Shown here piece by piece: positions 340 through 33,900 of a stretch of DNA of 64,000 bases (position 1 is its first letter; every line of letters starts with the position of its first letter). The DNA is from Branchiostoma lanceolatum. Lineage: Eukaryota > Chordata > Leptocardii > Amphioxiformes > Branchiostomatidae. The stretch spans positions 372,001 to 436,000 of the forward strand of contig NC_089723.1 of assembly GCF_035083965.1 (NCBI RefSeq), read 5' to 3'. Under the pieces are notes generated by a model, which saw nothing but the letters and a program-made list of their open reading frames with translations, made no database searches and was not told the DNA's origin. The position numbers and the translations under genes are program-made.

Positions 340-2014
340 AGTCAGGCGGTGACATCGACATCGTCGTTTCCTCCGACAAGGAGGTGAAGGTCGCAGCCAT
401 TCGCGCCGCGTTCCAGAAGGTGTTCGGCAAGGCCACGATAACAGGGGAGGCGTCGCAGTCCAACATCGCGCCCCAACCGGTCGGGTACGCGGCAGGACTG
501 AAGGTAGGGATACTTAGATAACTAGACGGGAATATAGTTCCCTTTTCTGTAACATACATGTAGTCTCCAACCAGACCCAATGGATTGCAAAGACCGTATC
601 CAACTGGAAGAAGCAGCTTGTATAGCAATCTTGGGTTGCAAAACGTACTTCATCTGCCAGTTTGATACGGTCTTAGCAACCTATAGGTCTGCATGGAGAT
701 TAATATACATGTACAGGAGGGAGAACATGGGTACTGTAAGCCACGGCTACGGGCAACGCGTCACAGTTGATTAGCCGGTCGGGTATGCCGCAGGACTGAA
801 GGTAGGGAGACGTACATGTAGATGGAAAAATACACTGTGGGGTTCTGAGTTCAGTTTCTACTTTTGTAACAGACATGTACAAGTTTTTAATGTTACTGTC
901 ACAATAAGTCGCAAGAAATCAGTTACAATGTTAACTGAAGGGACCACCCTAAAGATAAATAAATAAATAAAAGAGAGAGAGAGAGAGAGAGAGAGAGGAG
1001 TTGGCCCACAATATATGCCATCCAGAAGTCTATACAATACAAACTACCATGTGTCTCCGTCTGTGTTTGTTCATTTGTTTGTTTGTTTGGTTGCCAGGGC
1101 GCCCAGGAGAGAATCGACACCCTGAGGAGAAACGGTGTGATCCATGAGAAACAGCCGTGTGTCTCTGTGGAGAACTTCATCGCGGAGTTGCTGCCGGACA
1201 AGTAAGTCAGACGCATCGTCTCCCTCAGCTGACGGTTTGGGATAGTCCAAAGTTGACACTGTTTTACTCCATATCAAAACTCATCTCTCTGATAGAACTG
1301 GGTCATATCTTATTACCTCCATGAAAAATTGAGGTTATATATTGGGTAGCGTGTGTGTACGTGTGTCTGTGTGTGTCTATTGGTAAACGTAACGTTTAAA
1401 GATAACGTCCTGAAAAGAACAGCTGAATGGATTGGTTTCATATTTGGTGTGTTGATATGACATGATCTGAAAATGATTAGATTTTGGACCCCCTGGCAGC
1501 TTTCATAGGTACTGCAGTGGAATCATCGGTTTTGGTGCCTCATGTTCTAGACAAGCTATGGTCACGATATTTGGGTGATAGATACAAGTATATAACATTA
1601 GCACTTGTCTTTCAGAAAAGGTGGCATAAGTTTGGGTCACCGTGTTTTAATTTCCCCCAGGTGACATACTTAGTAGTAAACAAAACTTTCCCTTTCCACA
1701 GGTGGTTCGACATCGGCTGTGTTGTTCTGCAGGACCCGCTGAACGGCGTTGCCCTGGAGACGTTCACCCAGGCCACGCCCGTCCCCCCGGAGGCGGTTAC
1801 CCGGGCGCAGGACGAGACCCCGCCCGACTACAACCTGCGGTGGTCGGGGCTGGCCGTGACCTGTGGGGAGGCCATCGAGCGCACGACCCCCGGGGTTCAC
1901 CACGCCGACTGGCACCGCGCCTTCACCGGGATGTCGCGCCAGGACATGATCTTCTCGGCGGCCGTCGCACTCGCCGGCATGTACAAGCAGAGATTACCAG
2001 GCAGGCATGTATAG
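340..2014 (+). CDS. PRRC1: PRRC1 C-terminal domain, 3' part of the gene (three exons)
   Basis: Exons 340-503, 1098-1201 and 1702-2014 join in phase (AG acceptors, GT donors) to give about 193 residues ending at TAG 2012-2014. The product matches the conserved C-terminal domain of PRRC1 (proline-rich coiled-coil 1), an ITPase/YjjX-like fold. Landmarks are [56 protein letters not shown] and [10 protein letters not shown]. The family works at the Golgi/ER exit-site level and in PKA regulation; the catalytic status of the domain is unclear. The proline-rich N-terminal part lies left of the window. Intron 2 contains a dispersed repeat. Both the first donor and the stop-codon region have downstream duplicate copies (separate entries). 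Identification is confident; boundaries rest on splice signals and phase. Confidence 0.9.
775..812 (+). repeat. Duplicate of the PRRC1 exon edge and splice donor
   Basis: The stretch repeats the end of the 340-503 exon (ccggtcgggta.gc.gcaggactgaag) together with the following gtaggga donor, about 300 bp downstream in the intron. Similarity continues weakly to the acatgta that follows both copies, so exon and intron sequence were duplicated together. Confidence 0.75.
965..998. repeat. GA microsatellite
   Basis: A run of GA dinucleotides in PRRC1 intron 1, next to TAAA-rich sequence. Confidence 0.8.
1310..1560 (+). repeat. Dispersed repeat shared with 60155-60495
   Basis: It begins with a short hairpin around ctccatgaaaaattgag, passes through a gtgtgtctgtgtgtgt stretch, and later contains tttggaccccctggcagct followed by ggtactgcagtgg. 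The same order of motifs, in the same orientation, occurs in the last intron of the sialyltransferase gene. Family unknown to me; it encodes nothing visible. Confidence 0.55.
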
Positions 2015-2900
2015 GGGGCGCTAATACTGTTAAACAACTGTATAGGGTGTGCGTTAGGCTATATATGGGGGTAAGGTATTTGGATGTGGAATGAAATGAA
2101 ATATCACTACATGTACATGCATTTGGTCACTACTGTATTTACAAATTCCCTGATACGACATGTTCTGTACAAGTAAAACTGTATGGAGATTTCCCGGTAG
2201 GAATGTGTAGGGGGAGCTAAGTCCACTTTATAACTGTGTTTGGGGATCTACAACTGTTAAACAACTGTTAAACAACTGTTAAACAACTGTTAAACAACTG
2301 TTAAACAACTGTTAAACAACTGTTAAACAACTGTTAAAACTGTATGGGGGCCCTGAAAACACCAGGCATGTACAAGCACAGATTACCCGGCAGGCATGTA
2401 TAGGGGGCGCTAATACTGTTAAACAACTGTATAGGGTGGGTACGTTGGGTTGTATGGGGTTAAGGTATTGGGATATCGCTACATGTAGTTACTTCTGTAT
2501 TTAAGAGGCCCCTGATACGACATGTTCTGTGCAAGTAGAACTGTATGGGGGTGTTACACCTCTGAAGGATTGCATCAATTTATGTATGCCAACTTCAAAG
2601 CCTTTTCAAAGAGTCATATGGGGAGCTACAACTGTTTAACAACTGTATAGGGATGACTCTATTGCAGAAACTGTATAGGGGGTGCTACTATGGGTACACA
2701 ACGGTATAGTGGTGTACTTAGGCTGTTTGGGAGAAGGGGATGGGGCACTACATGTACAAGTAGAAATTACCTGCCAAAACTGTAGGGGAGACTACTGCTG
2801 TAGAAACTAGTTAGGGGATACTGATACCACTAAAGAACTGTATAGGGGGTGTACTTTTGGCTGGGGTTTGGGCTTCAGGTTGCCTCTATGTATGCGCTAC
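2015..2900. repeat. Degenerate tandem copies of the PRRC1 stop-codon region, with an 11-bp minisatellite
   Basis: The sequence around the stop codon (gtacaagcagagattacc, ggcaggcatgtataggggg) recurs near 2369-2435, including the coding end and TAG. Weaker echoes occur near 2170, 2520, 2755 and 2930. A nested minisatellite of aaacaactgtt runs from about 2249 to 2338 in about eight units. The region looks like a 3' UTR grown by repeated duplication of the last exon's end. Confidence 0.7.
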
Positions 2901-30953: not shown

Positions 30954-33900
30954 ATGGCGCTGATGTTCACAGCTACAGCGAAGTAAGGCCAACTTTTCCT
31001 CTTTTCTGTCTTAGAATGAGTCCTTTTGATGTTGTTTTGTGTTTGGATCGCAGTATGAGTACCAGGGATTGCTTAGAAACAATATTTATGCTATTAGAGG
31101 TCCAGAAATTGGTACAACGGCTCCGAAACAGAGGTGGTAGTTCACACACAGCCTTTTCAGGCGCACTTTGCCCAGGAAACCGGAAGCAAGCTCTCTGTCA
31201 GCTTGGAGGTTTTATAAATTTTAATTAAGAATAGAAAGTATTTGCTCTCACTCAGTGAAACCCGTCCATTGTGACCGCTTAAAAGGTTATAATATACATG
31301 TCATTAAAGACAAGATTCTTAGAGTACTGGTTGGAGAAAAATAGGGGGTAAAATTAAGTAACTGTAAGTGTAGTAAGGGACCACCAAAAAGGGGGCTGGT
31401 TTAATAGGTCAGGCTTATGCACAGACGGTCACTATAAGTATTACTAGTATTAGCGCAGGTTTGACTATACAGGGAACTTCAACTCATTGGCTTTACAGAT
31501 GCACGTTGTAATCCAACATTGGCAAAGATGATGTCAAATCAAAAGCCTGTATAACTTGTACAACCAAAGACAGTCTATAGAAGGTATTTGAAACAACTAG
31601 TAACATCAATCTCACACAAGTAACACAGTTCATGTAGTCATAGTTCCTTCTGTTCCACCCCTCAGTATAAAGAAGGCAGTGAGTCTGATAAACCAGCTGG
31701 ATGTAGCCAAGTTCCCCAGACTCCTGCAGAGGATCCTACAGAAGCTGCATCTCAGGGTGAGCATGGCTGTTTCTAGTCTGTAGTAAAGTAAACATTAGTA
31801 TTAATCAATACCATACAGTATTAATAGAAATTACCAAAGTCTACGTCCCTTACATACTCATCCCACAAAGTTTGAATATTCCCCTTCTCATCATCATAGC
31901 ATGCACAGCATTTAGATTTCTGCTGACTTGTTCCCAGGATGAGCAGTGTTTAAATTTGTGCTGACTTGTTCCCAGGATGAGCAGTGTTTAAATTTGTGCT
32001 GACTTGTTCCCAGGATGAGCAGTGTTTAAATTTGTGCTGACTTGTTCCCAGGATGAGCAGTATTTAAATTTGTGCTGACTTGTTCCCAGGATGATCGGTC
32101 CTTTTCTGAGGAGGAAGAAGAGATGCTGCAGCAGGCCCTGGGTCTGCAGGGGGGCGACCTACAGCTGGTGCTGGAGACAACAGCCTTCGTCTTGGAACAG
32201 GTAAACAAACAAACAAACAACAAATAATCAAAGAGCATGCCCTCAGACTTGCAGCAATGCTTATGACAATACTCAATCTGCTCTGTGTCTCCAAGCATCT
32301 CTGCCTTTCACAAGAAGAAATAAGCAAACATAAAGTGTTATTGATGATTGATGCAAGATGTGAATTATTATTGATTATCACATAGGTAGATGGCGTCGAC
32401 CAATCAGAAGCCTCCATTGCCCACAATAAGTGGTCTGTTATCACGCCATAACACACCACTTATGACGTCATGTCAGAACACAACCGTTCCATTTTGTAGA
32501 GGGGGTATCTTTTCGATGAATCTTTTTCTTAACCTTGTTTAAAAAATCTTTATAACCGTTGCATTTTGTAGAGGGGGTATCTATTTGATGAATCTTTTTC
32601 TTAACCTTGTTTAAAAAATGTTTATTGTCTTAGAATTCCTACAAATTTCCTTAGAATACATGAAAAAGGGAAAACAAATTTAAAATTCCCAAAAATGTTC
32701 CGCGTGTTCCATTTGTTCCGCGCGTTCCATTTCCTGCTGGCCAAAGAACCTGTGTTCTATTCAGGTTACCTGGGGTCATGTTGCAGGGAGATTCTTCAAT
32801 GATAACATTTTCTGACTGACCTGAAACCGACCCTCCTATCCTGTGTGGTTGAAATGAATAAATCAGGCAACAGTTGTACATATTCTTCATCATCTTCTGT
32901 TAAAAAAGGACAAATGTGAATTCTGAAATGAATTCTTGATAGTATAAGGGATCTATGCGTCAAACAGAAATTGTCTACTTTTATATGCGTCAGTTTGGAT
33001 AAGCTATATGATAATAACGTTAATGACCCGCCTCTTCCTTGGTGTATTTTCGCTCACTCGGTGGTTTTATTCGGTGGTTATAGCACCTGGCCAGGCGTTA
33101 TGACACCATATACACCTCGGGGCGGGTCATTAACCCTTGATTATCAGTATTTCCCCTGTAAAAAGTGTCCCTGTCCAGGCTGTCTACTGCTGTGCCAGTG
33201 TGATGTGTTAGTGCTAGGCTATCAATGAGTACTAAGTTATTGACTTGTGTCCTTACTAGGCTGCCTACCACAGTGCCAAACCAGCTGTGTTAGAGGAACA
33301 ACTGAAGAATATCCAGCTGGAGGAAGATAAGGTAAGGTTGCCATGGAAACAACATTGTCATGCTAACAGGGTTGCCATGGAAACAGCATCGTCATGGTAA
33401 TAAGACCTTCTGTTAGAGTCCTCATGAAAATTCTTTGAGTCAACGAGTCTAACGACTAAAAAGTTGCAGTCAGCAAAAGTGGCTTTTCTCTCAACATTGT
33501 CTTTGACTTGAAGCTTTGTTTATTCATTTATGCTGGGATACTGTTTTGATAAACATGCATTGTTCATTAAACATACATTAGCAGGTTACAGTGAGAATAT
33601 TTGGTTATGATGATATTCTCCAGTTGTATGTACAATAACATTTCTGTCCCTACACAGATCTCGGTGTTTGTGAAGGCGTGGGCTGCCGGCGGTAAGGAGG
33701 TGATCCTGAAGCTGAGGAAGAGAACCCTGGCACCGGACCAGGTGAGACAAGGGGCAGGTTTACCTCTGATCATGTGTATGTAATGTGTGGTGGTGTAACT
33801 ACAATAGCTGTCCATTTCAAAGTGAAATGATGAACCAAATTGTCACCTGCCAGACAAAGTTAGTAACTGTCAGACTCAAGCAAGTAGACAGACTTTTTTC

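What the first reader, a model, noticed from the sequence alone, without database searches (positions are those of the whole stretch)
340..32200. Tandem repeats are repeatedly seeded on exon edges in four unrelated genes
In PRRC1, SLC24A5, PEPD and COMMD10 nearly every tandem array contains an exon boundary: donor edges (PRRC1; SLC24A5 exons 3, 5, 6; PEPD exons 3, 4), acceptor edges (SLC24A5 exon 2; PEPD exons 2, 6; COMMD10 exon 3) and stop-codon edges (PRRC1, SLC24A5, PEPD). Units range from 38 to 385 bp, and several periods (38, 56, 67) are not multiples of three, so the process is not selected for protein length. Arrays extend into the intron or 3' flank, never through the exon, and copies seem more worn away from the exon. 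I recall an earlier report of exon-boundary minisatellites ('mirages') at amphioxus Adh, unchecked; if so, this window shows the process is general and touches acceptors and stop codons too. It implies a duplication mechanism tied to transcription, splicing or selection on the exon end.
Basis: partly seen in the sequence, partly recalled or inferred. Interest (0 to 1): 0.88.

Follow-up and report, generated by a model that had tools for sequence, protein, structure and literature searches.

The report
Tandem repeats seeded on exon edges
In a 36,000-letter stretch of lancelet DNA, 13 of 15 local repeats built from long units lie across the edge of a protein-coding exon, three of them at a stop codon with no splice site, likely because copying errors start in coding sequence and only those that leave one intact exon copy survive.

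Summary
I rebuilt the exons of PRRC1 (last three), SLC24A5, PEPD and COMMD10. Of 15 local direct duplications with units of 38 bp or more in 1-36 kb, 13 contain a coding-exon edge: 7 donors, 3 acceptors, 3 stop codons. Random placement of one unit predicts 3.2 (P=1e-8). Placement of whole arrays predicts 6.9 (P=7e-4). Eleven short-unit arrays (11-34 bp) hold none. A base-level rotation test is not significant (P=0.47), because arrays are multi-copy and already cover 22% of that stretch.

The phenomenon is known: 'mirages' were described in lancelet Adh, troponin C, globin and PGBD5 genes, acceptor edges included. What I did not see described is arrays on stop codons, which have no splice site. 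They argue against a splicing-tied cause and point to the coding/non-coding border.

Best reading: duplication starts preferentially in coding sequence, selection removes copies that break the exon, and repeats then grow on the non-coding side. Why exons are favoured is unresolved. A testable idea is that exon edges are the borders of similarity between the two very different parental chromosomes of lancelets. No lancelet genome was available, so the genome-wide test remains undone.

The parts
340..503 (+). PRRC1 exon whose donor edge (503|504) is copied at 775-832
   Evidence: copy 84.5% identical, G|GT kept
1976..2945 (+). PRRC1 stop-codon edge (stop 2012-2014) and degenerate copies downstream; main copy 2365-2546
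   Evidence: main copy 90.6% identical, TAG kept
6376..7427 (-). 388 bp x 2.7 array over the SLC24A5 stop codon (TAA 7170-7172); exon 8 is 7170-7501
8432..9298 (-). 67 bp x 12 array over SLC24A5 exon 6 donor (9274|9273) plus a distal copy 8432-8467 that keeps more exon
   Evidence: 12 of 12 copies keep G|GT
9769..10500 (-). 56 bp x 12.2 array over SLC24A5 exon 5 donor (10449|10448)
   Evidence: 11 of 11 aligned copies keep G|GT; the seven exon-side units (exon unit included) have no mismatch to consensus, the five distal ones have 1-4 each
11830..12034 (-). about 102 bp duplication over SLC24A5 exon 3 donor (11986|11985)
14896..15066 (-). 105 bp duplication over SLC24A5 exon 2 donor (15032|15031)
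15154..16202 (-). 169 bp array and worn copies over SLC24A5 exon 2 acceptor (15235|15236)
   Evidence: 5 of 5 edge copies keep AG; the repeat finder's own row covers only 15548-16202
20464..20899 (-). array with units of about 137-154 bp over the PEPD stop codon (20879-20881)
23746..24194 (-). 117 bp array over PEPD exon 6 acceptor (23824|23825)
25510..26132 (-). 117 bp array over PEPD exon 4 donor (26072|26071), with a nested 12 bp minisatellite
26631..26955 (-). 57 bp array over PEPD exon 3 donor (26931|26930)
   Evidence: 4 of 5 copies keep GT
28805..28848 (-). single worn copy of PEPD exon 2 acceptor edge (28641|28642)
   Evidence: alignment score 45; not reported at the threshold
31898..32094 (+). 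38 bp x 4.8 array over COMMD10 exon 3 acceptor (32089|32090)
   Evidence: 4 of 4 copies keep AG
55063..55146 (+). 42 bp in-frame duplication at the exon 1 donor of a predicted sialyltransferase gene; upstream copy is coding and reads GC in place of GT, downstream copy is the predicted donor
   Evidence: not reported at the threshold
48021..48534 (-). duplicated exon pair (48045-48116 and 48494-48577) of a GT4-type gene, donor edges included

Best explanation
These arrays are lancelet 'mirage' minisatellites and relatives of them at stop codons, and they likely arise when out-of-register copying (slippage, template switching or unequal exchange) starts in coding sequence and runs across the exon's edge. 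Shown: in the 13 arrays the repeated segment spans the coding/non-coding junction, the intact exon copy lies at one end, and the other copies lie on the non-coding side. Inferred: duplications wholly inside an exon are removed by selection unless they keep the reading frame, so edge-spanning ones are what survives. Inferred: only the exon-adjacent copy is spliced, since 38 of 39 alternative sites tested would shift or truncate the protein. Inferred: the arrays grow mostly next to the exon, leaving older, more worn copies farther out. Required but unexplained here: an excess of duplication starting in coding sequence, because uniform duplication plus a purifying filter predicts 3.2 edge arrays of 15, not 13.
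For: 13 of 15 long-unit duplications hold a CDS edge; expected 3.16 with placements wholly inside coding sequence disallowed (P=1.2e-8) or 6.85 with whole-array footprints (P=7e-4). A 60-nt junction query finds a junction-covering copy within 1.2 kb (score 40 or more) at 14 of 56 edges below 36 kb, against 25 of 928 non-coding control points outside the edge arrays (Fisher P=3.7e-9) and 7 of 313 CDS-interior points over the whole window; thresholds 28 to 50 give 15 to 13 of 56 against 46 to 19 of 928. Three stop-codon arrays show that no splice site is needed. 8 of 13 edge periods are not 3n, while the three repeat-finder arrays wholly inside coding exons have units of 12, 18 and 21 bp. Protein alignments cross the array-bearing splice edges of PEPD and COMMD10 without gaps, and so do the five of SLC24A5 against lancelet P0001, which ends one residue earlier at the stop edge. 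Of 39 exact-motif alternative splice sites, 38 give truncated or shifted proteins; the exception is SLC24A5 exon 3 (+105 nt, 550 aa, in frame) (PRRC1 not tested). Identity to the exon copy falls with distance (P=0.0002). The exon 5 array has no mismatch in its seven exon-side units and 12 in its five distal ones.
Against: By bases, edges are not enriched in repeats (13 of 56, rotation P=0.47; whole window 15 of 99, P=0.35); only the per-array and control-point tests are significant. Array lists were set by hand, on a window chosen for this pattern. The right half is weak (3 of 43 edges, P=0.10). Polarity could be the ordinary decay of similarity with distance: by mismatch to consensus only the exon 5 array is clearly one-sided, while exon 6, PEPD exon 3 and COMMD10 are not. 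None of the 3 start codons of SLC24A5, PEPD and COMMD10 carries an array, though less than one was expected. In B. floridae the de novo point-mutation rate does not differ between exons, introns and intergenic DNA (PMC12862219, passage; insertions and repeats were not measured there). In the predicted sialyltransferase gene the outer, not the inner, copy is the predicted donor. The coding bias itself has no demonstrated cause.
Confidence: 0.55

Rival explanations
1. Chance: local duplications fall evenly along the DNA, exon-interior ones are purged, and the edge arrays are simply those that happened to land there.
For: Base-level coverage of edges equals that of the region. Genes are dense in 1-36 kb, and whole-array footprints alone predict about 7 of 15.
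Against: Per-array tests give P=1.2e-8 by period and 7e-4 by full extent; junction queries against control points give P=3.7e-9. Short-unit arrays, which meet the same filter, hold no edge in 11, but that is uninformative since about 1 was expected.
Confidence: 0.12
2. A splicing- or transcription-tied mechanism (R-loops, spliceosome-bound nascent RNA or repair templated by pre-mRNA) makes exon-intron junctions break and duplicate.
For: 10 of the 13 edges are splice junctions, and donors outnumber acceptors 7 to 3.
Against: Three arrays span stop codons inside a terminal coding exon, where no splice site is present. Copies that hold a splice edge carry exon and intron contiguously, so spliced RNA was not the template; unspliced RNA is not excluded.
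Confidence: 0.15
3. Selection keeps extra splice sites, as backups or decoys.
For: 46 of 47 edge copies keep the GT or AG dinucleotide, 42.1 expected, P=0.03.
Against: Copies share descent, so the P value is too small. Use of other copies would mostly break the protein (38 of 39). Stop-codon arrays have no splice site.
Confidence: 0.07
4. Arrays are intermediates of intron gain by tandem duplication (Rogers model; proposed for lancelet globins by Ebner 2010).
For: Duplicated AG/GT-bearing segments are present. The predicted sialyltransferase gene has an in-frame 42 bp donor-edge duplication in which the outer donor is the predicted one. A potato gene shows intron gain from a duplication across an intron-exon boundary (PMC4974935, abstract read).
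Against: None of 41 introns shows the expected match of upstream exon end to intron end, or of downstream exon start to intron start, at shuffle P of 0.005 or less (lowest value 0.025).
Confidence: 0.03
5. Assembly artefact.
For: Tandem repeats are hard to assemble, and Ebner 2010 notes a draft-genome mis-assembly at one mirage.
Against: Most copies differ from the exon copy (some are identical), two-copy cases exist, and four genes are affected. PGBD5 mirages survived re-examination of reads.
Confidence: 0.03

Closest known systems
'Mirage' minisatellites at lancelet Adh3 (Canestro 2002; paper not held, known here through Ebner 2010)
   Different: Units here reach 389 bp (Adh3 10-72 bp as quoted by Ebner); three arrays span stop codons; at least ten splice edges in four genes within 32 kb; length polymorphism untested here.
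Globin mirages BflGb6 and BflGb9 (Ebner 2010, PMC3087553, passages read)
   Same: One acceptor-edge array and one donor-edge duplicate, 150-160 bp units.
   Different: Ebner had allele-length data and RT-PCR; here there is one haplotype and no RNA. No stop-codon array in the passages read.
PGBD5 tandem repeats at splice sites (PMC3902484, passages read)
   Same: 60 and 108 bp repeats over splice sites of a lancelet gene.
   Different: Two arrays in one gene. Here two neighbouring genes carry several each, with both edges of SLC24A5 exon 2.
Human internal tandem repeats in segmental duplications (PMC2812944, abstract and passages read)
   Same: Repeats at exon-intron boundaries change gene structure.
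   Different: There the repeats alter splicing in young paralogues; here the exon-adjacent copy appears to be used and proteins are conserved.

Membership tests
Lancelet mirage minisatellites | Tandem repeat unit spans an exon-intron boundary | tested here: met
   10 of the 13 arrays span a donor or acceptor
Lancelet mirage minisatellites | Boundary is a splice junction (applied to the three stop-codon arrays) | tested here: not met
   PRRC1, SLC24A5 and PEPD arrays span the stop codon of the last coding exon; they are mirage-like, not mirages in the strict sense
Lancelet mirage minisatellites | Many copies carry AG/GT splice signals | tested here: met
   46 of 47 edge copies
Lancelet mirage minisatellites | Host is a lancelet | tested here: met
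   PEPD 92% to Branchiostoma floridae; SLC24A5 88% to a B. floridae hybrid protein; species not identified
Lancelet mirage minisatellites | Regular splicing undisturbed | not testable with these tools
   No RNA; protein alignments are only indirect support
Lancelet mirage minisatellites | Allelic or somatic length instability | not testable with these tools
   One haplotype only; no genome held
Intron gain by tandem duplication (Rogers model) | Intron ends match the flanking exons | tested here: not met
   0 of 41 introns at shuffle P of 0.005 or less

The most novel reading that the evidence does not exclude
Exon edges in lancelets are the borders of similarity between two very different parental chromosomes. 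Repair or gene-conversion copying between homologues stays in register inside the conserved exon, loses its partner where the introns or 3' flank no longer match, slips back and copies the edge again. This would turn every coding border, donor, acceptor or stop codon alike, into a factory of tandem repeats, and mirage load across animals should rise with heterozygosity.
Probability: 0.25. Interest if true: 0.85.

Novelty: new variant of a known kind. Interest (0 to 1): 0.55.

Why it matters
Mirages have been noted gene by gene since 2002; the one source I read that discusses their origin calls the mechanism unclear (Ebner 2010). Here a per-array test shows the bias towards exon edges in one place, and stop-codon arrays separate the coding border from the splice junction, which narrows the possible causes. 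If the coding border is what counts, the arrays record where DNA copying loses its template, and the idea becomes testable in phased lancelet genomes and in other highly heterozygous animals. The arrays also place about a dozen strong-looking donor sites after one exon, of which probably only the first is used: a natural test of how splicing picks a site.

Tried and rejected
Tried without result or against my reading. Whole-genome access: none held. Base-level rotation test: no enrichment. Rogers intron-gain signature: absent. GC at edges with and without arrays: exon GC 0.600 vs 0.579, flank GC 0.467 vs 0.411, not tested for significance and no clear lead. Splice-site retention as evidence of selection: weak. 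Rfam scan: only a U4atac gene, unrelated. Literature for a genome-wide mirage survey: none among the papers listed from the held open-access library; the 2002 Adh paper is not held.

Rows dropped before counts. From: the CT microsatellite at 14710-14848, a GAAG-rich match merged with the SLC24A5 exon 3 copy, and the pair 18925/21666, which lies 2.7 kb apart and looks like a dispersed repeat; counting that pair as non-edge gives 13 of 16. Clusters 5104-7427 and 18925-21781 were split by hand. The two clusters beyond 36 kb were left out of the 13-of-15 count: 48021-48534 (edge) and 53454-54047 (not edge); with them it is 14 of 17. PEPD exon 2 acceptor and the sialyltransferase donor, found only by the edge-targeted search, are not in it. 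From: short-unit rows nested inside long arrays, microsatellite-like rows, and everything beyond 36 kb. Controls leave out the extents of the edge arrays by design. The distance test used copies that hold the edge; it left out two PEPD exon 4 copies, two SLC24A5 exon 2 pieces and one PRRC1 piece without the edge, and one PRRC1 copy whose stop is changed.

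
Full report
What is in the window. The first 36 kb carry four genes of a lancelet of the genus Branchiostoma, species not identified: PEPD is 92% identical to B. floridae and SLC24A5 88% to a B. 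floridae hybrid protein. I rebuilt the last three exons of PRRC1 (340-2014, plus), SLC24A5 (8 exons, 18273-7170, minus), PEPD (9 exons, 29793-20879, minus) and COMMD10 (8 exons, 30954-35168, plus) (four boundaries corrected). In some searches the first PRRC1 exon was entered as starting at 339; it starts at 340, an edge without an array, so no array count changes. PEPD aligns without gaps to prolidase 2iw2 over residues 8-481; COMMD10 aligns to COMMD10 8f2u with a single one-residue gap away from the array edge; that both are human is recalled. PRRC1 matches named PRRC1 proteins at up to 75% and Pfam PF01931. For the right half I modelled four more genes and one stop edge; their short labels (sialyltransferase, EEP, SAP) are recalled, only GT4 and Death domains come from a search. 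That gives 99 edges, 56 of them in the first 36 kb.

Is the pattern real? Self-comparison at copy distances up to 3 kb gives 17 clusters. After removing one CT microsatellite, one pair of dispersed copies 2.7 kb apart and the two clusters beyond 36 kb, and splitting a merged cluster, 15 local duplications with units of 38 bp or more remain in the first 36 kb. Thirteen contain a CDS edge: donors of PRRC1 (503), SLC24A5 exons 2, 3, 5, 6 and PEPD exons 3, 4; acceptors of SLC24A5 exon 2, PEPD exon 6, COMMD10 exon 3; stop codons of PRRC1, SLC24A5 and PEPD. The two that do not are a dispersed repeat at 5.1-5.7 kb and a 72 bp pair at 32482. By the repeat finder's own extents, 8 of its 10 rows with units of 38 bp or more hold an edge; the misses are that 72 bp pair and the SLC24A5 exon 2 acceptor array, whose clean part stops about 310 bp short of the exon and is joined to it by worn copies.

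Is it more than chance? Placing one unit of each length at random in 1-36 kb, with placements wholly inside coding sequence disallowed, predicts 3.16 edge arrays (P=1.2e-8). Placing the whole arrays predicts 6.85 (P=7e-4). A search that does not use array calls, 60 nt centred on each junction against 1.2 kb either side, finds a junction-covering copy at 14 of 56 edges below 36 kb and at 25 of 928 non-coding control points outside the edge arrays (Fisher P=3.7e-9); CDS-interior points over the whole window give 7 of 313. In 36-64 kb the same test gives 3 of 43 edges against 18 of 745 points (P=0.10). The opposite result must be told as fully: asking simply whether edge bases lie in repeats more than other bases shows nothing (13 of 56 edges, 22% of bases, rotation P=0.47; whole window 15 of 99, P=0.35). 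I read the difference so: each array is one event that then multiplies over non-coding DNA. Eleven short-unit arrays (11-34 bp) contain no edge, but only about one would be expected.

Anatomy. Periods run from 38 to 389 bp; 5 of 13 are multiples of three, about what chance gives. The three repeat-finder arrays that lie wholly inside coding exons (12 bp at 41418, 18 bp at 39425, 21 bp at 7308 in SLC24A5 exon 8) all have periods divisible by three, as expected if selection on the reading frame acts inside exons and not at edges. Of 47 non-exon copies holding a splice edge, 46 keep GT or AG; 42.1 would be expected from their divergence (P=0.03, ignoring shared descent). Stop codons are kept in 8 of 9 aligned copies that hold them.

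Which copy is used? Homologous proteins cross the array-bearing splice edges of PEPD, COMMD10 and SLC24A5 without gaps, so the exon-adjacent copy is probably used. At its stop edge SLC24A5 is one residue longer than P0001. Of 39 exact-motif alternative sites in nine arrays, 38 would truncate or shift the protein (one of them, the first alternative exon 6 donor, gives a shifted 527-residue frame); the exception is the second SLC24A5 exon 3 donor, which would add 105 nt in frame (550 aa). None of this replaces RNA.

Direction of growth. Identity to the exon copy falls with distance in 7 of 8 arrays with three or more copies (sum of rank correlations, permutation P=0.0002; SLC24A5 exon 2 acceptor flat). 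That alone is expected of tandem arrays. More telling, the exon 5 array has no mismatch to consensus in its seven exon-side units and 12 mismatches in its five distal units. The other three arrays looked at this way, exon 6, PEPD exon 3 and COMMD10, are not clearly one-sided. The distal copy at 8432-8467 keeps 25 nt of exon where the internal exon 6 units keep 17, so at least two duplication steps probably happened there.

Breakpoints. Junction homology varies. The exon 6 unit starts with about one base of homology, while the PEPD exon 4 array runs between copies of a 12-base motif, one in the exon and others in the intron (sequences, read by eye). No single joining route fits both.

Mechanism. 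Stop-codon arrays are the key evidence: they have no splice site, so the shared feature is the coding/non-coding border. Uniform duplication plus selection would produce edge arrays only in proportion to their share of tolerated placements, which the count exceeds about fourfold (13 against 3.16). So duplication must start more often in or next to coding sequence, and then be filtered. Why is open; de novo point mutations in B. floridae show no exon bias (PMC12862219, passage; insertions and repeats not measured). One idea fits facts from the literature: amphioxus heterozygosity is 3.2-4.2% (PMC12862219 and PMC12500494, abstracts in the listing), non-crossover tracts are mostly under 200 bp and crossovers track gene density (PMC12500494, abstract passage), more of the exonic sequence than of other classes aligns to the reference (PMC12862219), and introns show virtually no similarity between two lancelet species (PMC4284660, passage). 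Exon edges may be where inter-homologue copying loses its template. This is inference; nothing here tests it.

What is known. Mirages: Adh3, plus globins with one acceptor and one donor case (Ebner 2010, PMC3087553, passages), PGBD5 and, as cited there, troponin C (PMC3902484, passages); retinol dehydrogenase and presenilin papers are cited by Ebner as similar loci. I saw no stop-codon case in these passages and no genome-wide survey among the papers listed by searches, which cover open-access papers only. Ebner proposed intron gain; I find no such signature in 41 introns. The splice-edge arrays are new members of a known kind; the stop-codon arrays are a variant outside the strict definition.

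Limits. One haplotype, no genome, no RNA, hand-made array lists, and a window picked for the pattern.

Noticed in passing
window 13082-13208 (+): A U4atac minor-spliceosome RNA gene (Rfam RF00618, 82.8 bits) lies inside SLC24A5 intron 2 on the opposite strand.
   Followed up: no
window 55063-55146: In a predicted sialyltransferase gene a 42 bp in-frame duplication spans the exon 1 donor; the upstream copy is now coding and its GT reads GC, as if splicing had moved to the outer copy.
   Followed up: partly
window 48021-48534: Two neighbouring small exons of a GT4-type gene look like duplicates of each other, about 75% alike over 65 bp with their donor sites.
   Followed up: partly
window 46495-49801 and 62770-63998 (-): Two paralogous genes with a GT4-conflict glycosyltransferase domain (PF20706); the first also has a Death-domain exon, a combination that suggests an immune or cell-death role.
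   Followed up: no
window 41418-41529: A 12 bp x 9 coding repeat (DPGK) ends just short of a donor site at 41411.
   Followed up: no
window 5104-5742, about 6700-6760, about 7085-7145: A dispersed repeat recurs here; by eye, parts of it lie within the SLC24A5 stop-codon array units (one search shows the 5104/5651 pair).
   Followed up: no
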